Part shown: positions 49,711-61,574 of the stretch, piece by piece
How positions within the stretch are numbered: the stretch's first letter is position 1
Layout: each line of letters begins with the position of its first letter
Assembly: GCA_016124935.1 (NCBI GenBank)
Contig: WGMS01000017.1
Location: 58,963-122,962, forward strand
DNA length: 64,000 bases
Direction: 5' to 3'
Origin: a bacterium
GTDB lineage: Bacteria; Cyanobacteriota; Vampirovibrionia; Obscuribacterales; Obscuribacteraceae
The notes under the pieces: generated by a model
Database searches by the model: none
What the model saw: the letters and a program-made list of their open reading frames with translations, nothing else
Told to the model about the DNA's origin: nothing
Made by a program: the position numbers and the translations under genes

Positions 49711-51423
49711 ATGACCAGTGAAGGTCGCAAGAAAGAATCAGTCAGCGCTAACGAGAGCGCTGTCCCGGACGCACAAATTCTTGCCAGCCCTCCGTCCAGA
49801 ACGCAGCTGGCAGCGATCATGTCCGAAGCAGAAGATTCTGCCCCTATCGCCCAGGAGATAAAATTCGCCCTGGCCGACGGTCAGAAGTATCTTCTGCGCA
49901 TCAATTACCAGAGCAAAGATGCCAACGAGCCCAGCTGGGTGCTGAGCACCCTTGACGAAGTGCCGCCCACGGTATTCTGGAACATCTCCACCGAAAACCC
50001 CGAACAGATCTACAACCTGATTCTAAAGCGGGTGCGCAACACCAAAACCACCCCGCAAGCAAAACCAGCAGAGAACAAGGTCGAAACCAAGCCCCAGAGC
50101 AGATCTTCCCAGGAAGACACCGGACCGATAGGAGAATCGGAAGCCACCTATCGCAATATCCCGGACGCCCAGCCTATCGGCTCTTTTTTCAATGATCGTT
50201 ATGTTGTCCTGGGCGAGATAGGCTCCGGCGGCATGAGCCGGGTCTACAAAGCAAAAGATAAACGAAACGGTAAGACAGTGGCGGTCAAAGTGTTGCATCC
50301 CCACCTGCTCAAACAGGGACTAGCCACCAATAATGACCCTAGAAAGCGCTTCGAACAAGAATTCAAAGCGACCATGGCTCTCGGCCATGACAACATCGTC
50401 AGCGTCACGGACCATGGCTTCACCGATGAGGGCTTGCCTTTCATGGTGATGGAGTATATCAACGGACACAGCTTAGAGCAGCTACTGAGAGCCCAGAATC
50501 GCCTCAAACTGAGTCAATTCTTCACCACCTTCTACCAGACTCTCTCGGCGCTCATACATGCCCACGAACGCGGCGTGGTCCACCGGGACGTCAAGCCGAG
50601 CAATATAATGATGATCAAGACAGAGCAGAACGTCAACATCGTCAAGCTGCTCGATTTCGGAATCGCCAAAGTATTCAGAGAGAATACCGGCAGCAAGAAC
50701 GATCAGAATATCACCCAGACCGGAGACATCTTCGGCAGCCCTTTCTATATGAGCCCCGAGCAATGCAAAGGCGAGAACCTCGACGCCCGCTCGGATATCT
50801 ATTCTCTGGGCTGTGTCATGTACCAGGCCCTCACCGGCAAACGTCCCTTCGAGGGAGAAAACGCTTATAAAACAATCTATCTCCATGTCAATATCATGCC
50901 GCCTTCCTTCGGCATGGTCAGACCTGACCTGAGCCTGCCCAAGAAGCTGGAGGCAATAGTAATGAAATGCCTGGAGAAAAAGCCTCAGAATCGATATCAG
51001 GAAGCCCGGGAGCTTCGTCTGGAGTTAGAGAGGCTTGCCCAGGAAAATAACGAAGAGAGCGAAGGCTGGGTAACCAAACAGACCAAATCGGGCACTTTCT
51101 ACGCCGTCCACCCGACATCGGGCAAAGAAGAGTCGGCAGTGGTTATTTCTGTTTTAAAACTCTTGCTCCATGCAGGAATCATCGACAATGACGCCTATGC
51201 CAGAGCCTCTCACCTGGATGACACAAGCACCGCCGGCACAAGCAAATGGCTTGTGCAATCAGGATTTCTAGACAATAAAACCCTCCACGCCGCGATCAAA
51301 TGCCAGGCTTTAATAGAACGCAAGGATCTGAAGCTCGAAAAAGCGGTGATTGCCCTGAATTATTGCCAGCGTATGCGAGTCGGGCTCGATGAAGCCCTGG
51401 AAGAGCTTGGCTGGAAAATCTAG
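49711..51423 (+). CDS. Soluble Ser/Thr protein kinase with C-terminal MshEN-like module
   Basis: 570 residues. Residues ~45-110 are a small N-terminal domain (VFWNISTENPEQIYNLILKR), ~115-150 a linker, and ~162-440 a complete Hanks kinase: G-loop GEIGSGGMSRVY, AVKVL (K193), HRDVKPSN (291-298), DFGIAK (315-320), GSPFYMSPEQ. All catalytic residues are present, so it should be active. No membrane helix, unlike most bacterial Hanks kinases. Residues ~478-569 form one copy of the ~90-residue module that the 400-residue protein at 33562-34764 carries four times, ending in the same GLDEALEELGWK. RBS GGAG. Stop shares CTAG (51420-51423) with the convergent giant gene. Confidence 0.93.
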   Translation: MTSEGRKKESVSANESAVPDAQILASPPSRTQLAAIMSEAEDSAPIAQEIKFALADGQKYLLRINYQSKDANEPSWVLSTLDEVPPTVFWNISTENPEQIYNLILKRVRNTKTTPQAKPAENKVETKPQSRSSQEDTGPIGESEATYRNIPDAQPIGSFFNDRYVVLGEIGSGGMSRVYKAKDKRNGKTVAVKVLHPHLLKQGLATNNDPRKRFEQEFKATMALGHDNIVSVTDHGFTDEGLPFMVMEYINGHSLEQLLRAQNRLKLSQFFTTFYQTLSALIHAHERGVVHRDVKPSNIMMIKTEQNVNIVKLLDFGIAKVFRENTGSKNDQNITQTGDIFGSPFYMSPEQCKGENLDARSDIYSLGCVMYQALTGKRPFEGENAYKTIYLHVNIMPPSFGMVRPDLSLPKKLEAIVMKCLEKKPQNRYQEARELRLELERLAQENNEESEGWVTKQTKSGTFYAVHPTSGKEESAVVISVLKLLLHAGIIDNDAYARASHLDDTSTAGTSKWLVQSGFLDNKTLHAAIKCQALIERKDLKLEKAVIALNYCQRMRVGLDEALEELGWKI

Positions 51424-54400
51424 ATATCAGTATCTTCGGAAATATCATCGGTCCTTTCGGGGTTTTGAGAATCTTCTTCGAAGCACTTTGTCAGGGCAGA
51501 CCTCGCCCCGGGATGAACTGGCTCGAGAAATTCAGCCAGGTCGAGAAAGCCGCTTTTCAGTCGGGATCTGCGAGCAGGGTCGAGAGAGTCTATATTCTTA
51601 TCGCAGAAAGAAATTATTTTTGCGGCAAATTTAGAATCCAGTTCGTAGCGTTTGATGAAATCCTCTACCTCTTTCAGGAGCTGCTTCATGTATCGCGTCG
51701 AAGGCACGTCGGTGGTCAGAATCCTGGCTAGTTTTTCCATAATCAGATCCTGTTCCACAAGCTGTATCTGAATCGACAACTCGATACCGGCCGCTTCGTA
51801 TATGGCTATGACCTCGTCGCAATCCGGTCCGCGAACATGGCGCCTGGCAAGCTTGCGCAAAAGATGACGACCATCCTCGGACTGACTCCCCAACTCCTTC
51901 AACTTTGTCGCTGCCTGGTCGTGCTGGCGAACAGCATCGAGACAATCTATCACCGCAAGGGCTCTATCGTCATTGGAGGCGCCGAATATGACCAGCGCCG
52001 CCTCGTAGATAGAAGAGGCATGGACGCCATGCTGCAGCGATTCATGATCTTCTGCTTCCATATATAAGTGATCTGCCAGCCTCAAAGCCAGATCCGATTC
52101 CAACTCGATGGTCTCGTTTATCAATGCCGCTCCCACCCTGTAGATATCCTTTCTCTGGGCGGAAGGATCTATCAATGTCCGGATCTTCCCTTTGCTCAGG
52201 TCCTTGCCCAAAGCAAACTGAGCCAGACATACAGAAGCACGATAATAACTTTCGACCCTGCCCTGGTTGGAAGAAAGAGCTGAGCGAGACTCCGCCACCG
52301 CTTTGCTGAAACAGGACTTAGCCATTCTTGTGTTAGAGAGCAAGTACTGGCAATAACCGAGCGCGATCTCGGCATCCACAAAGAATCGTCTTCCTCTATC
52401 CATGTTCTCGAACTCGGTAAGAGCCTTTACCGCCTCTCCATAGCGCTCTCTGTCGACCAGAAAGAGCGCTCTATGAAGCGCTTTCCATAGCTTCTCTTCC
52501 TTGGTAGAGCGAAACCTTGTCTTGACGACCGCCGGAGCAGGGGCATTCTTGAAACTTCCATCCACCCCAATCAAAATTTCGCCACCATTATCAGTGCTTT
52601 CATCCGCTTCCAAAGCATCCTGATCGTCAGCCCAGGGACGCTTCAGACCTGACTTCAGCTTAGCCGAGGGCACACACTTGCCGAGCCTGACCCTGACCTC
52701 TTCGAACTCATCAGGCATATCTTCGAAGATTTCAGAGAGAATGCTCAGATGATTCTCCATCCCCTCCGGGCTGGAGCGACCGATCAACTCTACCACTCGC
52801 ATGGCGAAGTCAGGACTCAATCCATCCCGCTCTTTGAGAGTGGAAATTATCTCGATGGCGCAACCGAGTGCGTAACCATCCACCAGGGCAAGCCCGGTTC
52901 GATCGCGGTTTTCCAGAGCGATGGTGAAATAGCGCATGGACCACAGCTCATAGGCCTGGACCACGTTGCCACCGGCCTTGCCTTCGTGTTTCTCGAAGAT
53001 ATTTATAGCCCTTCCGAACTTACCCTGATCGACAAGATTATGCGCCAGGGTAATCTCGCGCCGATTTCTCCAGGTCTCCACTTTCTCTTCCATCAGTGTG
53101 AGGCGTATGTCATCCTCCTCCGCACACCATGAAAGTAGAGAAAGAGTCATCTTGAGCTCATCGTCGCTGACATGTTCATAGGATCTGGCCATTTGTAGAT
53201 CCAGGACCTTGACCAGGATCTGAAAGATAAGATCAAGCTCAAAATGATTGGCGCGCATGGTGGCACCGACGATGGCCCTGACGGTACGCTCCAGATCCGG
53301 TGAATCGAGCAATAAACCGGCGGCGGTATCGAGGTCGTCATTAACCAGCAAACACTCGATCACCCGATGGGCATCGGCATCCACCAGGCCAGCTCGCTGA
53401 AAGATCCTGAAGCTGGTGGCATATATCTCCTGGGCGTCTCGTCCACGCCCTACAGAAGTAAGATCCCTGGCACAATCAGCCAGCAAAACCGCCAGATTTT
53501 TGGATCGATTCAAGCGACACTTGTCTAAATAAGCCAGAGATAGAGCGAGACTCTCACCGGTAGGAGCAATCTCGCTCAGATAGTTGAGACAGCGGTTGCG
53601 TCTTTTGTAACCGCCTGAGTCGGTAATCACCACGGCAAAGAAGACAGCGAAATGAAATTCATAAATAGACTCCAGTTTATTCAAAAGGTCGATAGAATGA
53701 GCCTGCCCTTCTTCGAAGGAGTCCATCATGATGGCGGCGGCTTCGGGCGTCTTGCCGATAGCGAGCAGACAGTCGGCGATATAGACACTAAACTCGCCGG
53801 AGCCGCCCGGGAGCTTTCGAAACAGCTCCAGAGCCTTCTGATAGGCTATCTTAGAATATTTATACTGCCTCTCCAGATAATAGCGCTCCGCCACCTCTCG
53901 CAAGAAGATCGCATAACGACTGGTTGTTAACAGCCTGGAATGCGCGTTCTCGGCCTCTAGAAGAGTGGTCAGCCCGACCGGGTTTCGTATATTGTCCCGA
54001 AACAACTCAATCACTCTATCTCCATCATTCTCGAATCGAGCCACGGATATAGCCGTAATCGCCCTCAGCACCAGGAGCTTGACCTCGTTGGCGGACCGTT
54101 CGTCGGTAGTTTCAATACGCTGGCAAAATTCTATCAACGCTTCAAAAGAGGCGATGGCGCTCTCCATCTCGTCTCTCGACAAATAGAGATGACCAACATC
54201 CAGCAATAGATTGGGAATGGTCAATTTATTACCGAAAGCGCCGTCTTTCTCCTGCCGAATCACAGAAAGGAATGCTCTCGACTTCTTCAAAGATTTGATC
54301 ACCAGATCATAAGAACGATCCAGTTGATCCGATTCATAATAAGTCGCCGCCAGAAGCAGGGTAGCCCGCATGGAAGACTGGCTGGAGCCGAGCACCGAGG

Positions 54401-55727
54401 CATAGCGCTGGGCCTCACGGAAGTAATGCGAGGCGGTGCCAATCTGGTTCGTCTTGATATAGCAATAGCCCAGGCGAACATTGGCTTCATAAGACCAGTG
54501 ATAATAGTAACTGCGGTCCGCAATCAGCTCCGGCACCGGCTTCAGCCTCTGAATCGCCTCGGAATAATTGCCCAAGTCATAGGCACTGATGCCTCTGGTA
54601 ATGCAGGTCTCAGCCCATATATCGGTAGCCAGCGAGGATGCCACCCGCATATGCATGTCCTCTTTGATTTTAGCTACTCTGCCAAGCAAAGATCGCGGTA
54701 TTTTCAACCGGGGATGGCGCCTTGCCCGCCGGGGACGTTTCGCTAGATCATTGAGGTCACCTGGCTCCATGCCGAGGTCGGAAATCAAATTGATCTCGGA
54801 TCTATCACAGATATAATTCTCTTCGTCGGCAAAAATCTCCTCCATCTCCTCAAAAGAGGCAGAAAGATCTGGTATCGCTTCCGGTTTCACTTTGAGCAAT
54901 CGCTTCATTTGAGCGCCATGTCGCCTGACCTCCTCGCTTTCATGGCTGGAAAGCTCGGCAAAGAGGGCCGAATTCTCCGGACTTCTCAAATCGCGATGGC
55001 GGAAAAGAAGACAATCGTCACCACATTCGAAGCGGCTCCAGAGATCAGGGTCCTCTTTCAAGATAGATAGAGAGGTATCTATCAAATGGGCCGAAAAGTT
55101 ATCGAGGTCACCACTGAATAGAGAGCTGTTTCTTCGAGGATGTTGAAAGTTGCGATGACCGAGTTCGACACTCTCGGAACCCGACAGGCGAGGGACATAC
55201 ATGCCGTCATAGTCCACCAGGACCATGCGCTCGTCTTCTATCAAGATATTGCCGTGCTGAAGATCACCATGGGCAATGCGGCGTTCATACAAACGTTTCA
55301 TCAGAAGCCGGAACTGGCTCTGTATAGAGTCGAGTCTGGAATGATCGCCCACGACCTTGTTTAGATACTGATCTAAAGGAAGCCCTTCGCACCAGTCCAT
55401 CTTCAAAATCGGGTACCAGCGCCCCGACACTTTTATGCCCCTGCTAATAAAGCGAAATCTGACGAAATCCTCGAAGTCAACCGCCGCAAGGGACTCTTCG
55501 ATGATTGCATAGCGGGCAAGCAGACCGGCCCGGTCCTCCAGGAAGCAGCGAACCGCATGCACACTTTTGCCACTGCGCAATTTGTATACACTGGCAAAAG
55601 AACCGGTTATGGATCTGGGCAGACCGAGCGGATTGAGAGAAACTGTGGCAAGCTTGAGCTCTGGATCTTCAAAACAAAGATCCGGTCTTTGAATGGCTTC
55701 GTTAAATTCCTGGGGAGTGGGCCACAT
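51420..55727 (-). CDS. Protein-kinase-like/TPR giant protein
   Basis: 1435 residues. Residues 1-~330 are an atypical kinase-like domain: MWPTPQEFNEAIQRPDLCFE, GLPRSITGSFASVY, VHAVRCF, IAHGDLQHGNILI (153-163; HGD in place of HRD), LVDYDGMYVP (DYDG in place of DFG), GHRNFQHPRRN and GDLDNFSAHLI. This head is like the kinase found with TerY/PP2C stress systems, from memory. From ~375 on are many TPR-like helical repeats (e.g. YYHWSYEANVRLGYCYIKTN, YSKIAYQKALELFRKLPG, ALGYCQYLLSNTRMAKSCF). No partner vWA or PP2C gene nearby. Last gene of the ATP-grasp/DUF1704 unit (62-bp gap). Confidence 0.85.
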   Translation of the reverse strand: MWPTPQEFNEAIQRPDLCFEDPELKLATVSLNPLGLPRSITGSFASVYKLRSGKSVHAVRCFLEDRAGLLARYAIIEESLAAVDFEDFVRFRFISRGIKVSGRWYPILKMDWCEGLPLDQYLNKVVGDHSRLDSIQSQFRLLMKRLYERRIAHGDLQHGNILIEDERMVLVDYDGMYVPRLSGSESVELGHRNFQHPRRNSSLFSGDLDNFSAHLIDTSLSILKEDPDLWSRFECGDDCLLFRHRDLRSPENSALFAELSSHESEEVRRHGAQMKRLLKVKPEAIPDLSASFEEMEEIFADEENYICDRSEINLISDLGMEPGDLNDLAKRPRRARRHPRLKIPRSLLGRVAKIKEDMHMRVASSLATDIWAETCITRGISAYDLGNYSEAIQRLKPVPELIADRSYYYHWSYEANVRLGYCYIKTNQIGTASHYFREAQRYASVLGSSQSSMRATLLLAATYYESDQLDRSYDLVIKSLKKSRAFLSVIRQEKDGAFGNKLTIPNLLLDVGHLYLSRDEMESAIASFEALIEFCQRIETTDERSANEVKLLVLRAITAISVARFENDGDRVIELFRDNIRNPVGLTTLLEAENAHSRLLTTSRYAIFLREVAERYYLERQYKYSKIAYQKALELFRKLPGGSGEFSVYIADCLLAIGKTPEAAAIMMDSFEEGQAHSIDLLNKLESIYEFHFAVFFAVVITDSGGYKRRNRCLNYLSEIAPTGESLALSLAYLDKCRLNRSKNLAVLLADCARDLTSVGRGRDAQEIYATSFRIFQRAGLVDADAHRVIECLLVNDDLDTAAGLLLDSPDLERTVRAIVGATMRANHFELDLIFQILVKVLDLQMARSYEHVSDDELKMTLSLLSWCAEEDDIRLTLMEEKVETWRNRREITLAHNLVDQGKFGRAINIFEKHEGKAGGNVVQAYELWSMRYFTIALENRDRTGLALVDGYALGCAIEIISTLKERDGLSPDFAMRVVELIGRSSPEGMENHLSILSEIFEDMPDEFEEVRVRLGKCVPSAKLKSGLKRPWADDQDALEADESTDNGGEILIGVDGSFKNAPAPAVVKTRFRSTKEEKLWKALHRALFLVDRERYGEAVKALTEFENMDRGRRFFVDAEIALGYCQYLLSNTRMAKSCFSKAVAESRSALSSNQGRVESYYRASVCLAQFALGKDLSKGKIRTLIDPSAQRKDIYRVGAALINETIELESDLALRLADHLYMEAEDHESLQHGVHASSIYEAALVIFGASNDDRALAVIDCLDAVRQHDQAATKLKELGSQSEDGRHLLRKLARRHVRGPDCDEVIAIYEAAGIELSIQIQLVEQDLIMEKLARILTTDVPSTRYMKQLLKEVEDFIKRYELDSKFAAKIISFCDKNIDSLDPARRSRLKSGFLDLAEFLEPVHPGARSALTKCFEEDSQNPERTDDISEDTDI

Positions 55728-55789
55728 GAAACCGAGGTTTCCCCTTAGAAGAAGTAATAGCTAACTATATTAGATTCTACCCGGGAATC

Positions 55790-57748
55790 TCAGGAAAGCT
55801 TGAGAGACTTGCTGAATTCAGAAAGGGTCATCCCCTGACGTATACGCTCCAGCCTCTCTCCCGCGTCGGACTCTCTGAGATAACGAGGCACGACAGCAGG
55901 CTTCTTCAATACCCGACGCCAGAGCAGCTCTTTAACAAGAGGAAGCTGAATCTGGGGCATCTTCCCGACAAAAAGAGAGTCTAAATCGCCGTCATTCTTC
56001 AAATATTCGAGAAGCCAGATAAGCCCTCTTAAATATACGGCGTCCTTGGTAAAACCGCCGGAGCGGAAGACCCTGGTGACAAGATTGAAAGCAAGCTTAT
56101 TGTCAAAGCGATAGGTGCCGGTCAGCTCCCGAAAGACCTCCAGATAGCTCGCGCCGTTCAGCATCATCCGCACTGCCACCACCCTTGCCGCCAGCATCCG
56201 CATGCGCCTTCTGGTCAGCCCGCCGGACAGATACTCGGCCAGCACCGCCAGCCCTTCTTGCACTTCGTCGTAACCCACCAGCCCGGAAGCCATCTGCCGA
56301 AATGGCTGCAGGCGCCCGTTATAGAAAGTGACCACATGGGTGCCTATCTCATGTTGAAGAATGGCTCTTACTCTGGTCTCTGGAATGCGACTGCTTGGAT
56401 TGATCAACAGATTGCCGCTCGAGACCATCACCCCCGAGACATCCTCCCTGAGCTCCACATCGAACTGGAAATCGGGATACTTCTGTTGATAGAAGCGAAG
56501 CTCCTGTCTTGCCTCCTTCGCAAACTCTTTAGCCGACAGAGACTCTTTCAAGTTCTCATCCCGAGAGTTAACCGGCACGATATCGAGCACCTGCCGGGCA
56601 AGCTCTACATGAACTTCACTGGGCACTCCAAAGAGCTGCATGCTGCCATAGAGAAAGTTGGCGGTGCCTCTATCCGAGAGCATGGATATCTGCCGGTCGA
56701 TGCCTTTCTGCTGCTCTCTGAACAATTGCGCCAGAGCAGGGTCCTCCACCCGGTCGATACGGATTTCATATAAGCGCCGCTTCAAATCGGCAGGCTCCAC
56801 CGCCACCGGTCGGTAGGTAAAATGAGGCTCCTTCTGAAAGCCGTCCTTTTTAAATTCTTCGAAAGCAGAGTTATAGTTGGTCGGCGTCGCCGCCAATACC
56901 AGGTCGAATTGCCCGGAAATGGTCGCAAGCTGGTGGTCGATGTCGAACACTGTCTTTACTATGCTGCGCGGACCGAGCTGCTGGAAGTTGCGGGGTCTGT
57001 AGGTAGTATGTTTCTGGGTAAACTCGAAGAAACTGTGCCGCATCGCCCGGGTCAGCTCGCGGTTTATGACTTGTAGAATCAACGGGAAATCGTTCTTTGT
57101 ATTGGAGTCTCGATAGACATCCAGCACCTCTATCCCCAGGGTAAAAGCATTGAGCTGCCTGGCTTTTTTCATAGAGATCAAAGAGAGCATACCCGGCGGG
57201 CTGGTGCGGCTGCCCGGCACCACATCGACTATAGCGGGCTGCTTATGCACCCTGATGCGCTTCAGGCTGCGCTCTAATCTATTGACGGTCTCTCTGGGGA
57301 TGCGCTCCTGGGGAAGATGAATCTTAAAATGGGGCGGTCGCGCAGGCATATCTCCAGTGGCTTCCACCGCCGACACCCAGACTTCTAGTATTAAAAAAGC
57401 GCCGAACTTTTCTGATAGCGTCGACACCACTTCCGATACCAGCTTCGTCAAGGCAGAATGATGCCGCCGGGCGCCGGAAGCGGTGAGATAAGACGCCTCG
57501 CCCATGACCAGACGCTCGTCGCCGAAACTGGTGATGCCTTCCGGCTTGCGATAGACGGTTAAAAAGGGCAGCTGTCGGTCGATACTGATTTTGCCCCAGG
57601 GAGAGAGCTGCCGCCGGATGCGCTTGCTCTCCTCCAGCCGAGTCTTTATATACGGCAGAAGCTCCTTAGCCCGTCCGTCTTTCTTGGCAACGCCTTTACT
57701 ATTTATAGATGCGCTCTTGTCGCGACCTCTGCCGCCATTGTCAACCAC
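55790..57748 (-). CDS. DUF1704 (QEGLA-motif, MATCAP-like) putative zinc metallopeptidase
   Basis: 652 residues. The family hallmarks are HEIGTH (466-471, an HExxxH zinc motif) and VQEGLAVLAEYL (Glu498 as probable third ligand). The N-terminal half (~30-330) is a separate alpha/beta domain including FHFKIHLPQERIPRETVNRL-type beta strands. The DUF1704/KIAA0895 family includes the eukaryotic tubulin tyrosine carboxypeptidase MATCAP; bacterial members are annotated only as flavohemoglobin expression-modulating. GTG start at 57748; 33 bp after the ATP-grasp gene, so cotranscribed. Substrate unknown. Confidence 0.9.
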   Translation of the reverse strand: MVDNGGRGRDKSASINSKGVAKKDGRAKELLPYIKTRLEESKRIRRQLSPWGKISIDRQLPFLTVYRKPEGITSFGDERLVMGEASYLTASGARRHHSALTKLVSEVVSTLSEKFGAFLILEVWVSAVEATGDMPARPPHFKIHLPQERIPRETVNRLERSLKRIRVHKQPAIVDVVPGSRTSPPGMLSLISMKKARQLNAFTLGIEVLDVYRDSNTKNDFPLILQVINRELTRAMRHSFFEFTQKHTTYRPRNFQQLGPRSIVKTVFDIDHQLATISGQFDLVLAATPTNYNSAFEEFKKDGFQKEPHFTYRPVAVEPADLKRRLYEIRIDRVEDPALAQLFREQQKGIDRQISMLSDRGTANFLYGSMQLFGVPSEVHVELARQVLDIVPVNSRDENLKESLSAKEFAKEARQELRFYQQKYPDFQFDVELREDVSGVMVSSGNLLINPSSRIPETRVRAILQHEIGTHVVTFYNGRLQPFRQMASGLVGYDEVQEGLAVLAEYLSGGLTRRRMRMLAARVVAVRMMLNGASYLEVFRELTGTYRFDNKLAFNLVTRVFRSGGFTKDAVYLRGLIWLLEYLKNDGDLDSLFVGKMPQIQLPLVKELLWRRVLKKPAVVPRYLRESDAGERLERIRQGMTLSEFSKSLKLS

Positions 57749-57781
57749 AACTCGATCCCGACTCGATTAGAGAGATTCAGA

Positions 57782-58828
57782 TTACAAAGTGGCAAGCTCT
57801 ACATTGTCGAATTTGCGCCGGTAGTACTTCATATAATCCACTTTGTTCTCAAGGGACAATATTACCGCATGGGAGAAATTAACGCCCTCGAACTTCTGGG
57901 CGGTGATAAGACCCCCCGGAGAGAACACGTTTATCTCCATGAGCTTGTTGCCGACAATATCGAGACCGACAAGAAACATCCCGTCTTTACACAGCTTGGG
58001 CCGGACCATTTTACAGAGCATAAGCGCCTCGGCGGTAATCTCTGCAGGCTCCACCGAGCCACCGGCATGGACATTGTTGCGAATGTCCCCTTCCATGCTC
58101 ACCCTTCGAAAGGCGGCATACTTACCTTTATAACGCATCGGTCGGCCGTTCATCATAAACAGCCTGACATCCCCTTTTCGCGCTTCGGGCAGATATTCCT
58201 GGGCGATGATATAGCCATCCTTGGAAAGAGCGTCGACAATCTGATTGAGGTTGGTCATATCCTCGGGCTTGACCAGAAAGACCCCCTTGCCGCCAGAGCC
58301 TTGCAAAGGCTTCAAAACCACCCAGTTGCCTTCCTCTTTGGCGAAGCGCCGGATCTTCTCGCGACTGCGGGTAATAATCGTCCGCGGTCTGACCTCTTCT
58401 GGAAAAGTCTGGAAATACATCTTGTTCATGGCGTCAGCCAGTGCATAGGGGTCGTTGAGCACGATCACTCCATGACTGAGGGCGACCCTGCCAAAATCGA
58501 GACCCACACCCTGGGCCCAGTGCCGGGCTCCGGTGTCTTTTGCCGGGTCGCTACGCAGAAAGAGCACGTCTAGGTCATGCACCGTGATCTCTTCGATTCT
58601 CGCTTTTGGCCCCTTGAGATCGGCCAGATAAGTGGCGCCGCTCTTGTAGCTTGCCCTCGGAGCATGCCTGGCTCTAGCCTTAATAGTATTGTCCTTCTCT
58701 AAAATAAAATCGTCGGCTCCAATCACCCAGGCTTCGTGACCCCGGGCGATAGCGGCCATGGCCAACTGGTTGGTGGTATAGCCATCCCCTTCGGTCATGA
58801 CATCGTTTACGTAAAAAGCCAGCCTCAT
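57782..58828 (-). CDS. ATP-grasp ligase, glutathione-synthetase (GshB)/RimK-like
   Basis: About 348 residues from ATG 58828 (GGAG 10 nt upstream); the frame extends to a GTG at 58849. ATP-grasp motifs: VVLKPLQGSGGKGVFLV (nucleotide lid), IIAQEYLPEARKGDVRLFMM and the metal site LMEINVFSPGG. The N-terminus MRLAFYVNDVMTEGDGYTTN is GshB-like. Makes an amide/peptide bond on a carboxylate substrate. A true GshB role is not assured: no gshA in the window, and its immediate partner is the DUF1704 protease. Confidence 0.88.
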   Translation of the reverse strand: MRLAFYVNDVMTEGDGYTTNQLAMAAIARGHEAWVIGADDFILEKDNTIKARARHAPRASYKSGATYLADLKGPKARIEEITVHDLDVLFLRSDPAKDTGARHWAQGVGLDFGRVALSHGVIVLNDPYALADAMNKMYFQTFPEEVRPRTIITRSREKIRRFAKEEGNWVVLKPLQGSGGKGVFLVKPEDMTNLNQIVDALSKDGYIIAQEYLPEARKGDVRLFMMNGRPMRYKGKYAAFRRVSMEGDIRNNVHAGGSVEPAEITAEALMLCKMVRPKLCKDGMFLVGLDIVGNKLMEINVFSPGGLITAQKFEGVNFSHAVILSLENKVDYMKYYRRKFDNVELATL

Positions 58829-59121
58829 GCTTACAAAACTCCGGAGCACCTGGTAACAGGGCTCGATTCTAACTCAGATAAGAGGCTCAATGTAAATGTC
58901 GCAGCAATGATGTGAACACACTTCTCAAAGATCCTAGACCTGACAACTGCAAAAAAAATTCTTATTTGTCTATCATCATCGCTATCTACCACGACCGCGG
59001 AAGATAGCCCTTCTGGAGTCGTCCATGACAATGCTCATTCCAGGCTGAAGTAGCCCACCGAAAAGATTCAACTATGTAGAATAGAGTAGCGTAAATCTAA
59101 TCTCCATGCGGTTATTCTCTT

Positions 59122-59880
59122 TTGATCAAAATCACCAATCTCTCCAAAAGCTTTGACGGAGGCAAGACTTACTCTGTCAAAGAGCTCGATCTCGAAGTCA
59201 AAAAAGGCGAATTACTGGTGTTGCTGGGCTCCTCCGGCTGCGGCAAGAGCACCACCATGAAGATGATCAATCGTTTAATAGAGCCTACCCAAGGCACCAT
59301 CGAAATCGACGGCACAATAAACACCGAATTGAACAAAGTCGAACTTAGAAGAAACATCGGCTATGTCTTTCAAAAGATAGGTCTATTCCCCCATATGACC
59401 ATAGAAGAAAATGTCTGCATAGTGCCGAAGATGCTGAAATGGTCGAAAGAGAGAATGAAAGAGAGAGCCAGAGAACTGCTCTCTTTAGTAGAATTGCCCC
59501 TGGAACAATACGGAAACAGGCTGCCTCAGGAGCTCTCCGGAGGGCAGCAACAGCGCGTGGGCGTAGCCAGAGCCCTTGCGGTGGACCCTGACTATCTATT
59601 AATGGACGAGCCCTTTGGCGCACTAGATGCGGTGACCAGAGATTCGCTGCAAAAAGAAGTTCTACAGTTAAAAGAAGAGCTTGGCAAAACCATAATCTTT
59701 GTAACCCACGATCTTTTCGAAGCGCTGCTTCTAGGCGACAGGATAGCTGTCATGGACGGCGGCATCCTGCAACAATGCGGCGCCCCGGACGAGCTACTAA
59801 ACAGCCCCAAGACAGATTTCGTCAAAGAGCTATTCTTGAGACCGGCACGGCAACTGTCTCAATTCAAAGAAGTATTTTAA
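59122..59880 (+). CDS. Quaternary-amine (glycine betaine/choline) ABC transporter ATPase
   Basis: 252 residues. Walker A GSSGCGKST, signature LSGGQQQRVGVARALA, Walker B LLMDEPFGALD, switch His in FVTHDLFEALLL. The FQKIGLFPHMTIEENV segment is that of the OpuBA/OpuCA/ProV group, which takes up osmoprotectants. TTG start, no good ribosome site. The CBS domains of ProV are absent. 11 bp before its permease. Confidence 0.93.
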   Translation: MIKITNLSKSFDGGKTYSVKELDLEVKKGELLVLLGSSGCGKSTTMKMINRLIEPTQGTIEIDGTINTELNKVELRRNIGYVFQKIGLFPHMTIEENVCIVPKMLKWSKERMKERARELLSLVELPLEQYGNRLPQELSGGQQQRVGVARALAVDPDYLLMDEPFGALDAVTRDSLQKEVLQLKEELGKTIIFVTHDLFEALLLGDRIAVMDGGILQQCGAPDELLNSPKTDFVKELFLRPARQLSQFKEVF

Positions 59881-59891
59881 AGAGGTAACAG

Positions 59892-61574
59892 ATGAACGGG
59901 CAAAGCTGGCTGCAATTCGTAATCGAAAGACAGGATGCACTATGGTTGAGAACCGGAGAGCATCTTATGCTGGCTGGACTCTCTACGGTTATCGCCACCA
60001 TTATTGGCATCACCCTTGGAATAATCGGCTTCAAAATCCCACGATTCAAGGGCATACTGCTTGGTATAGTCGGCATTCTGCAAACCGTCCCTTCTCTGGC
60101 GCTGCTCGTATTTTTGATGGCCCTCTACCATAAAATAGGAGTCCTTCCAGCACTTACAGCATTGATACTCTATGCCCTCCTTCCAATAGTCCGCAATACC
60201 ATAACCGGGCTGGAAGGCGTGGACAAAGCCACCATGGAAGCCGCCGAAGGCATTGGCATGACCGCCACCCAGCGTCTGATTATGGTAAGGATACCTCTTG
60301 CGATTCCAGTAATCATCGCAGGCATTCGCACCGCCGCCGTGGTGGGCGTCGGCGTCGCCACCCTGGCAGCTTTTATAGGAGCCGGCGGTCTTGGAGAATT
60401 CATCAATAGAGGTCTCGCCCTCTCCAACACCAGACTGCTCTTGCTAGGTGCCGTCCCGGCAGCATTGCTTGCCCTGATTGTCGACTTCAGCCTGGCCGGC
60501 GTCGAATGGGGACTGAAACCTATAAGAACCAACGAAAAAATCGGCAACCGCCCCCTTCTAAAGACCTTGAAGCGTGCCACCATCGCGGTACCGATACTGG
60601 TCCTTGCTCTCAGCACCTATATCTATCTAGAAGGTCATCCTCTGGTCTCCTCCCACGGCAAAGTCGCCATCGGCACCAAGCACTTCTCCGAACACATAAT
60701 TCTTGGAGAGATGATGGCCCAGATAATCGAGTCTAAGACAGACTTGAAAGTGGTTCGAAGATTCGACTTCCCCGGCACCATGTTCTGCCACAAAGCGATA
60801 CTCTCCGGTGACATAGACATCTATCCGGAATACACCGGCACCGCCTACAGTGCCATCCTGGGCTACGAACCCCATTCCAAACAAAGCCCCGATGAGATCT
60901 TCAACAAAGTCCAGGCAGACTATAACAAACAGTTCGATTTAAAATGGCTGTCGCCTTTCGGCTTCAATAACACCTACGCCATGGTAGTTCGAAAGAAAGA
61001 CAAAAAAGAATATGGTTGGGAGAAAATTTCTGACCTCACCGATGTCGCCCCCAGCCTGGTCTTCGGTGTAGCTTCCGAATTTGCCGAAAGACCGGACGGA
61101 CTGAAAGGTCTGGAAAACGCCTATGGTCTCAACTTCGAGAATGTTTCCGACATGGACCTCAATCTGGTATACAACGCCCTCAAAAGCGGAGAGGTCGACT
61201 TGATATCAGCCAACTCGACCGACGGCAGAATCCCGGCTTTTGACCTGGCAGCGCTAGAAGACGACAAAAGCTTCTTCCCTCCCTACGAAGCCGCCCCGCT
61301 TATTCGCGAAGACACGCTTGCAGAACACCCGGAGCTAAAAGAAGCCCTAGAAGGCCTGGAAGATATTCTAGACGACAACGAGATGCAACGCCTCAACTAT
61401 GAAGTCGACGGCAAGAAGCGCTCACCAAAAGCGGTAGCACGGGAGTTTCTACAAGAGAAAGGCTTGATTAAGTCGCCAGAGCCGGAGCCGGAGCAAGACC
61501 CCGAAGAGACTGTCAGTTATAAATACGACTATGACCTGGGCAACACAGGCTTGTCTTTGGGCTTGAACATATAA
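59892..61574 (+). CDS. Fused OpuB-type permease and substrate-binding protein
   Basis: 560 residues. Residues 1-~215 form a BPD-type permease with five or more helices (LVFLMALYHKIGVLPALTAL, AEGIGMTATQRLIMVRIPLA coupling loop, GLGEFINRGLAL). A linker and helix (~225-245) lead to a substrate-binding domain (~253-520) with VAIGTKHFSEHIILGEMMAQ, FDFPGTMFCHKAILSGDIDI, YPEYTGTAYSAI and ANSTDGRI, the OpuAC/OsmF fold. Such fusions deliver osmolyte uptake with the ATPase upstream. The C-terminus overlaps the convergent desaturase by 46 bp. Confidence 0.93.
   Translation: MNGQSWLQFVIERQDALWLRTGEHLMLAGLSTVIATIIGITLGIIGFKIPRFKGILLGIVGILQTVPSLALLVFLMALYHKIGVLPALTALILYALLPIVRNTITGLEGVDKATMEAAEGIGMTATQRLIMVRIPLAIPVIIAGIRTAAVVGVGVATLAAFIGAGGLGEFINRGLALSNTRLLLLGAVPAALLALIVDFSLAGVEWGLKPIRTNEKIGNRPLLKTLKRATIAVPILVLALSTYIYLEGHPLVSSHGKVAIGTKHFSEHIILGEMMAQIIESKTDLKVVRRFDFPGTMFCHKAILSGDIDIYPEYTGTAYSAILGYEPHSKQSPDEIFNKVQADYNKQFDLKWLSPFGFNNTYAMVVRKKDKKEYGWEKISDLTDVAPSLVFGVASEFAERPDGLKGLENAYGLNFENVSDMDLNLVYNALKSGEVDLISANSTDGRIPAFDLAALEDDKSFFPPYEAAPLIREDTLAEHPELKEALEGLEDILDDNEMQRLNYEVDGKKRSPKAVAREFLQEKGLIKSPEPEPEQDPEETVSYKYDYDLGNTGLSLGLNI

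What the first reader, a model, noticed from the sequence alone, without database searches (positions are those of the whole stretch)
51420..58828. ATP-grasp ligase paired with DUF1704/MATCAP-like metallopeptidase and a kinase-TPR giant
Three minus-strand genes (33- and 62-bp gaps) form one unit: a GshB/RimK-type ATP-grasp ligase, a DUF1704 peptidase with HEIGTH and QEGLA motifs, and a 1435-residue HGD/DYDG kinase-like TPR protein. In eukaryotes an ATP-grasp ligase (TTL) adds and a DUF1704 enzyme (MATCAP) removes the C-terminal Tyr of tubulin. A bacterial ligase/carboxypeptidase pair beside a scaffold-kinase could be a reversible amino-acid tagging system. The pairing is seen; the function is inferred.
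Basis: partly seen in the sequence, partly recalled or inferred. Interest (0 to 1): 0.75.

Follow-up and report, generated by a model that had tools for sequence, protein, structure and literature searches.

The report
Conserved peptide-building and peptide-trimming gene pair
In this relative of cyanobacteria and in 13 other bacterial phyla, a gene for an enzyme of the amino-acid-joining kind sits right beside a gene for a relative of the human enzyme that trims tubulin; the pair, which databases label as glutathione and flavohemoglobin genes, is predicted to build and trim a short peptide as salt levels change.

Summary
The window (a Candidatus Obscuribacter relative) carries a GshB-type ATP-grasp ligase, a long MATCAP/DUF1704 metallopeptidase and a kinase-TPR giant as one minus-strand unit.

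The pairing is conserved well beyond this strain. Among 79 named loci, 67 have the ligase within 400 bp downstream of the peptidase. In 246 Planctomycetota-type genomes, all 12 with the ligase over its cut-off have the peptidase next door.

The usual third partner is not the kinase. It is an N-formylglutamate-amidohydrolase (FGase)-like hydrolase, just upstream in 58 of 79 loci and on another contig here. The peptidase's own N-terminal domain looks like a degenerate copy of that hydrolase.

The ligase is probably no glutathione synthase: it misses both equivalog cut-offs, and 26 of 44 genomes tested lack both gshA families searched, this one included. It resembles GshB and then RimK more than tubulin-tyrosine ligase.

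Loci are enriched for mechanosensitive channels (17 against about 0.75 expected), and a published Photobacterium RNA-seq shows adjacent genes of these names induced 38- and 28-fold at low salt. Best reading: a ligase-hydrolase module that builds and trims a short, probably acidic peptide, like RimK-RimB and RloC-RloA. Chemistry and substrate are inferred; a tubulin-style tagging cycle is possible but unproven.

The parts
57782..58828 (-). GshB-type ATP-grasp ligase of the NF009110/PRK12458 subfamily (348 aa from ATG; a GTG start at 58849 is possible)
   Evidence: NF009110 469 bits; best solved structure match E. coli GshB, then RimK
57785..57820 (-). Conserved C-terminal tail of the ligase (RRKFDNVELATL), beyond the end of the E. 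coli GshB match and of low model confidence
   Evidence: 88 of 91 sequences (window included) end in Leu; pLDDT 58 then 41 in the last blocks; GshB match ends at residue 338
55790..57748 (-). Long-form MATCAP/DUF1704 (TIGR02421 'QEGLA') metallopeptidase, 652 aa
57005..57604 (-). N-terminal domain (residues 49-248), FGase-like fold, probably a degenerate, non-catalytic copy of the operon partner
55805..56899 (-). Catalytic MATCAP domain (residues 284-648)
56336..56353 (-). HEIGTH metal-binding motif
   Evidence: H466, E467, H471 in 84 of 84 sequences
56246..56260 (-). QEGLA motif with the second conserved glutamate E498
   Evidence: Q497 and E498 in 84 of 84 sequences
51420..55727 (-). Kinase-like plus TPR protein, 1435 aa; lineage-specific neighbour of the ligase in the Obscuribacter family
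   Evidence: full-length orthologues (32-33% identity) 1.7-7.4 kb from the ligase in G006, G023 and G033
49711..51423 (+). Ser/Thr protein kinase, convergent neighbour; relatives stand beside the kinase-TPR gene in G006, G023 and G033
59122..61574 (+). OpuA-type glycine-betaine ABC transporter (ATPase, then permease-substrate-binding fusion), divergent from the ligase
   Evidence: ABC_tran, BPD_transp_1 and OpuAC over cut-off

Best explanation
This is a conserved ligase-hydrolase gene module, likely serving salt and ion homeostasis, whose ATP-grasp enzyme likely joins amino acids into a short acidic chain that the MATCAP peptidase and an FGase-like hydrolase would take apart again. Shown: the genes, their conserved motifs and adjacency, the common FGase partner, the fold match of the peptidase's N-terminal domain to FGase, and the enrichment of mechanosensitive channels nearby. 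Inferred: the ligase activates a carboxylate as an acyl phosphate and couples an amine, as GshB and RimK do; the peptidase removes C-terminal residues, as human MATCAP/TMCP does; the degenerate FGase-like domain positions the substrate that the active FGase also uses; the balance of the activities is set by osmolarity. Where two or three distinct ligases stand in a row, each would add a different residue. In this lineage the kinase-TPR protein may add regulation.
For: Adjacency: ligase within 400 bp downstream on the same strand in 67 of 79 loci, FGase just upstream in 58 of 79, both in 54, in 13 phyla by record title (my mapping) plus the window's own. 12 of 12 Planctomycetota-type genomes and 4 of 4 among 60 genomes of the window's class co-carry ligase and peptidase. 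Two or more ligase matches at 18 of 79 loci, in 14 with at least two over 280 aa; copies of one locus mostly fall in different clades. HExxxH/Glu of the peptidase and the conserved polar residues of ligase and FGase are kept. The ligase model ranks GshB, RimK and ArgX first. MscS: 17 against 0.74-0.77 expected in 41 loci, with CorA, MgtE, CNNM and cation-chloride cotransporter types also recurrent. PMC10308900 (table rows and passages read): GshB A0J47_RS17020 38.42-fold and QEGLA A0J47_RS17025 27.51-fold up at 1% against 3% NaCl. Precedents: RimB removes Glu residues that RimK adds; mutants without the RloA proteases cannot grow at low osmolarity and loss of ATP-grasp RloC rescues them (PMC12239564, PMC11957791). 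Human TMCPs trim tubulin tails and deglutamylate (PMC10499314).
Against: No substrate, product or activity is known. The ligase misses the RimK-family cut-off (76 against 143 bits), so a Glu substrate is only analogy. The Photobacterium genes were linked to this module by name and neighbouring tags only; their sequences were not compared here. The MscS comparison was made after clusters had been picked for recurrence, with different search modes in genomes and in loci, and 6 of the 41 loci are Poribacteria; the other transporter families were not compared with a background. In the window's own lineage the FGase gene is on another contig, and three relatives have ligase and peptidase on different contigs. 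Two Planctomycetota-type genomes with ligase matches under the cut-off (G341 382 bits, G117 285 bits) have no MATCAP.
Confidence: 0.42

Rival explanations
1. A one-way biosynthetic pathway: FGase-like deacylase, peptidase and one to three ligases are successive steps that make a small peptide metabolite (an osmolyte or signal), with no build-and-trim cycle.
For: 14 of 79 loci carry at least two ligase genes over 280 aa, whose copies mostly fall in different clades, which fits stepwise assembly; the ligase is highly conserved (mean column identity 80% in the 19 sequences of A2), as for a fixed small substrate; no precursor peptide gene stood out among the 15 largest small-ORF families looked at.
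Against: Two hydrolases with kept conserved residues are odd in a purely anabolic set; the known ATP-grasp/peptidase pairs are antagonistic.
Confidence: 0.3
2. A protein C-terminal tagging cycle in the style of tubulin detyrosination or RpsF glutamylation, acting on a host protein.
For: The peptidase is a clear MATCAP relative with the HExxxH Glu and a downstream Glu, as in human TMCPs whose Glu mutants are dead (matched by motif, not by numbering); RimK, the second-best fold match of the ligase, tags RpsF (PMC12239564).
Against: No target protein was identified (small ORFs near the module were examined, the proteome was not); TTL itself is a poor match; several ligases in tandem are not needed for one tag.
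Confidence: 0.17
3. A glutathione pathway: the ligase is a GshB, and the peptidase and FGase degrade glutathione or relatives.
For: Databases name the ligase glutathione synthase; 18 of 44 genomes have a match to a gshA-type family, some of them weak; GshB is the nearest solved structure.
Against: Both glutathione-synthase equivalog models are missed (211.7 against 272 and 197 against 299 bits); 26 of 44 genomes lack GCS2 and Glu_cys_ligase, the window's own included; other gshA families were not searched.
Confidence: 0.06
4. The genes are neighbours by shared regulation (salt, stress) but act on unrelated substrates.
For: In three Obscuribacter-family relatives ligase and peptidase are on different contigs; MATCAP also occurs as a short form, mostly in genomes without the ligase over its cut-off.
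Against: Overlapping or near-overlapping genes in many phyla and 12 of 12 co-occurrence; the peptidase carries a domain that looks related to the third partner.
Confidence: 0.05

Closest known systems
RimK-RimB (poly-alpha-L-glutamate ligase and retropepsin-like peptidase of Pseudomonas)
   Same: ATP-grasp ligase co-encoded with a peptidase that reverses its product; RimK is the second-best fold match of the ligase
   Different: Here the ligase is GshB/PRK12458-type and below the RimK-family cut-off; the peptidase is a MATCAP metallopeptidase, not an aspartic one; an FGase-like hydrolase is added
RloA-RloB-RloC (Pseudomonas rlo operon, hypo-osmotic tolerance)
   Same: Cytoplasmic ATP-grasp protein plus peptidase in one operon, tied to growth at low osmolarity (PMC12239564; abstract, passages and section 8 read)
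   Different: [quoted passage not shown] neither type was seen among the recurrent neighbours here
Human MATCAP/TMCP (KIAA0895L, KIAA0895)
   Different: The bacterial long form has an extra FGase-like N-terminal domain and a ligase partner that is not TTL
E. coli glutathione synthetase GshB
   Same: Fold of the ligase and alignment of residues recalled as ATP- and Mg-binding
   Different: Misses the glutathione-synthase equivalog cut-offs; conserved extra C-terminal tail; neither gshA family searched in 26 of 44 genomes
N-formylglutamate amidohydrolase (PF05013; HutG)
   Same: Family of the third partner and fold match of the peptidase's N-terminal domain
   Different: The partner from L036 misses the HutG equivalog cut-off (16.5 against 278.75); no His of the N-terminal domain is conserved at 95%
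N-acetylglutaminylglutamine amide (NAGGN) osmolyte genes (recalled; only a search listing seen)
   Same: As recalled, an ATP-grasp ligase and a peptidase serving a peptide osmolyte
   Different: Different ligase family (TIGR03103 matches only at E 0.006) and, as recalled, high-salt rather than low-salt induction

Membership tests
MATCAP / TIGR02421 (QEGLA) metallopeptidases | Profile score over the curated cut-off | tested here: met
   PF08014 311.3 against 27; TIGR02421 348 against 338.65
MATCAP / TIGR02421 (QEGLA) metallopeptidases | HExxxH and downstream Glu | tested here: met
   H466, E467, H471, E498 in 84 of 84 sequences
MATCAP / TIGR02421 (QEGLA) metallopeptidases | Carboxypeptidase activity on a C-terminal tail | not testable with these tools
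   Seen here only for eukaryotic relatives (PMC10499314, passages)
Glutathione synthase (GshB equivalog) | Equivalog score over cut-off | tested here: not met
   NF003573 211.7 against 272; TIGR01380 197 against 299.05
Glutathione synthase (GshB equivalog) | gamma-Glu-Cys supply (gshA) in the genome | tested here: not met
   Own genome has no GCS2 or Glu_cys_ligase match; it is 89% complete and other gshA families were not searched
PRK12458/NF009110 ATP-grasp subfamily | Score over cut-off | tested here: met
   469.4 against 408
Tubulin-tyrosine ligase (TTL) | Pfam TTL over cut-off | tested here: not met
   [not shown]
RimK glutamate ligases | TIGR00768 over cut-off | tested here: not met
   76.3 against 143.4; the broader Pfam RimK domain is over its cut-off, 59.4 against 21
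RimK-RimB / RloC-RloA type ligase-peptidase pair | Peptidase of the retropepsin-like (RimB/RloA) family | tested here: not met
   The peptidase matches only PF08014 in Pfam at E 0.1
RimK-RimB / RloC-RloA type ligase-peptidase pair | Peptidase reverses the ligase's product | not testable with these tools
   Needs assays
FGase (PF05013), partner gene in the own genome | Score over cut-off | tested here: met
   83.7 against 28.9, G000:C31; 55% identical to the operon FGase of L036
FGase (PF05013), N-terminal domain of the peptidase | Homology by profile and fold | tested here: inconclusive
   [not shown]
Protein kinase (kinase-TPR protein) | Kinase profile over cut-off | tested here: not met
   Pkinase 19.4 against 31.7; ABC1 20.1 against 22.9; HGDLQHGN and DYDG kept, the position I take for the usual lysine is Arg in 10 of 11 aligned

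The most novel reading that the evidence does not exclude
Bacteria run their own C-terminal 'code': this module is the bacterial counterpart of the tubulin tail cycle, with an ATP-grasp ligase that adds residues and a MATCAP enzyme, helped by a dead and a live FGase, that removes them, tuned by osmolarity. The ligase's own conserved ...FDNVEMATL tail, ending in Leu in 88 of 91 sequences, would be one substrate, so that the trimming enzyme switches the building enzyme on or off; eukaryotic MATCAP would descend from it.
Probability: 0.13. Interest if true: 0.92.

Novelty: new variant of a known kind. Interest (0 to 1): 0.68.

Why it matters
Many bacterial genes are named 'glutathione synthase' and 'flavohemoglobin expression-modulating QEGLA motif protein' although they stand together as one conserved module, and the first name at least does not fit. 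If the module builds and trims a peptide under osmotic control, it would be a further, independent ligase-peptidase system beside RimK-RimB and Rlo, it would point to an unknown bacterial metabolite or protein tag, and it would give a bacterial setting in which the ancestry and chemistry of the tubulin-trimming MATCAP enzymes can be tested. Carriers with strain names exist (L035 and L081 Bythopirellula polymerisocia, L041 Planctomycetes bacterium Pan216, L088 Rhodocytophaga aerolata).

Tried and rejected
Glutathione synthetase: disfavoured (equivalog cut-offs; neither gshA family searched in 26 of 44 genomes). TTL-type ligase: rejected. Kinase-TPR as the universal third partner: rejected; among 60 relatives full-length matches only in the window's family, and no match in the 79 loci. 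Precursor peptide: the 15 largest families of small ORFs (25-110 aa) near the module are pieces of known genes, frames that I take for antisense, and a small protein with a likely membrane stretch in six Poribacteria loci; smaller families were not looked at. In G023 and G033 the stretch between ligase and kinase-TPR was checked for a degraded peptidase; it holds a TPR-like gene instead. Foldseek alone gave nucleoside phosphorylases for the peptidase model (best E 3.9e-4; TM to target of the six best 0.31-0.39, rmsd 8.6-10.2); the realignment put human MATCAP, then DUF885 proteins, then FGase on top. The own FGase had no believable PDB match by sequence (two rows, E 0.87 and 0.94). Not measured against a background: CorA, MgtE, CNNM and cotransporter counts. 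The phylum names are my mapping of record titles. The 19 rows each of A1 and A2 were my pick from the 120 listed hits, A1 with the window's C4 paralogue added.

Literature: searches (open-licence PMC only) showed no paper on the module in their listings; the 2009 amidoligase survey that I recall is not held. The origin of the 'flavohemoglobin' name was not traced.
Full report
What is there. A second, unlinked MATCAP with QEPLA in place of QEGLA lies at C4.

The pairing is real and widespread. These are the ones most similar to the query, not a random sample. In 67 of 79 the ligase match starts within 400 bp downstream on the same strand, often with overlapping frames. Of the other 12, three end at the contig edge (L022, L050, L053), four have no ligase in reach (L045, L061, L067, L085) and five have it nearby but not adjacent or turned round (L014, L044, L068, L076, L089). 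An even sample of 246 genomes of the phylum of a Planctomycetes isolate is a better control: 42 have MATCAP, 12 have the ligase over its cut-off, and all 12 have a MATCAP match near a ligase match on the same contig (in G274 only a MATCAP fragment at E 2.2e-4 is on that contig; hypergeometric 1.4e-10, not corrected for kinship). Two genomes with ligase matches under the cut-off (G341 382 bits, G117 285 bits) have no MATCAP; two others (G288, G164) have both on one contig. Of the 30 MATCAP genomes without a ligase over its cut-off, 23 have open frames of 407-483 aa, a short form without room for the N-terminal domain. Among 60 relatives of the window, the same 4 genomes carry both.

The ligase. 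It passes NF009110 and misses both glutathione-synthase equivalogs, the RimK-family model TIGR00768 and Pfam TTL. Structure ranks GshB 23.9, RimK 19.4, ArgX 17.8 (model pLDDT 80); GshB residues that I recall as ATP- and Mg-binding align. Of 44 genomes tested (4 Obscuribacter-family and 40 others, out of those behind the 79 loci), GCS2 occurs in 17, some weakly, and Glu_cys_ligase in one other; 26 have neither. Eighteen loci have two or more ligase matches, in 14 of them at least two over 280 aa. In the tree the copies of one locus mostly fall apart (L017, L026, L027, L037, L066, L069; L032, L038, L062, L074), though several deep nodes have low support. The ligase ends in a conserved tail: of 91 sequences reaching the C terminus (window included) 88 end in Leu and 69 have Thr before the last residue; nine further Obscuribacter-family copies, none beside MATCAP, all end in Thr-Leu, and three of these with 50-58% identity, one of them an interrupted gene, keep little more than the final ATL. 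The tail lies outside the E. coli match and is of low confidence in the model. It may be a docking motif, part of an oligomer, or a peptidase substrate.

Setting. Members of six recurrent neighbour families in 41 loci with long flanks were scanned (51 proteins): 17 match the MscS beta domain, 10 MgtE_N, 8 amino-acid permease/cation-chloride cotransporter type, 6 CorA, 6 CNNM. The 40 genomes behind them hold 214 MscS matches in 203.5 Mb, so 0.74-0.77 are expected in 0.70 Mb. This test was chosen after seeing the clusters, and the loci are not independent (6 of 41 Poribacteria). In the window itself a glycine-betaine transporter diverges from the ligase. In Photobacterium damselae, genes with adjacent tags annotated GshB and QEGLA rise 38.4- and 27.5-fold at 1% against 3% NaCl (PMC10308900, passages read); the authors treat the first as glutathione synthetase, and I did not see the sequences. 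In Vibrio vulnificus, VV2_1203 (COG3930) and VV2_1204 (glutathione synthetase), adjacent by tag, are listed as clade-2-specific (PMC3091676, passages).

How it likely works. Known ATP-grasp/peptidase pairs act against each other: RimK adds Glu to RpsF and makes free poly-Glu, and RimB removes Glu from RpsF, though it also stimulates poly-Glu synthesis by RimK (PMC11957791, abstract and outline; PMC12239564, passages); mutants without RloA proteases cannot grow at low osmolarity and are rescued by loss of ATP-grasp RloC (PMC12239564). Human TMCPs cut C-terminal Tyr and Glu (PMC10499314, passages). I therefore favour a build-and-trim module for a short, probably acidic peptide under osmotic control. 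Whether the chain is free or on a protein is open; tandem ligases favour a free peptide, MATCAP kinship favours a tail.

The kinase-TPR protein. Full-length orthologues (32-33% identity) lie 1.7-7.4 kb from the ligase on the same strand, with Ser/Thr kinase genes, in the three other family genomes that have the ligase over its cut-off and MATCAP; other genes stand between, and the peptidase is on another contig. It is a lineage-specific neighbour from a family with many copies per genome, and its kinase activity is uncertain.

Noticed in passing
L011:9038-10999 (G000:C4): Second MATCAP in the window's genome with QEPLA instead of QEGLA and no ligase or FGase beside it; G006, G023 and G033 also carry a MATCAP without them, in largely shared gene order.
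   Followed up: partly
window 57785-57820 and relatives: Ligase C-terminal tail ...FDNVEMATL is conserved to the last residue (Leu in 88 of 91 sequences) although predicted with low confidence.
   Followed up: partly
G023:C9 (L127:8822-9865): An extra ligase copy is interrupted by a stop, so it looks like a decaying paralogue or a sequencing fault.
   Followed up: no
L044:3828-8227: A gene of the cluster that contains MgtE-type transporters sits between peptidase and ligase.
   Followed up: no
Obscuribacter-family genomes: The kinase-like N-terminal domain of the giant belongs to a family with nine scored matches (the cap) in several genomes, on frames of different lengths; the position of the usual lysine is arginine in 10 of 11 aligned.
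   Followed up: partly
Planctomycetota-type genomes: A short MATCAP form (open frames of 407-483 aa in 23 of 30 genomes without the ligase over its cut-off) occurs; its partners were not examined.
   Followed up: no
PMC10308900 table: A gene annotated RimK is up 52-fold in the same low-salt comparison as the ligase and peptidase, so two ATP-grasp ligases respond together.
   Followed up: no
L121:7029-14442 (G006): Three tandem kinase-containing proteins of 812-817 aa stand between ligase and kinase-TPR gene, where the window has the peptidase.
   Followed up: no
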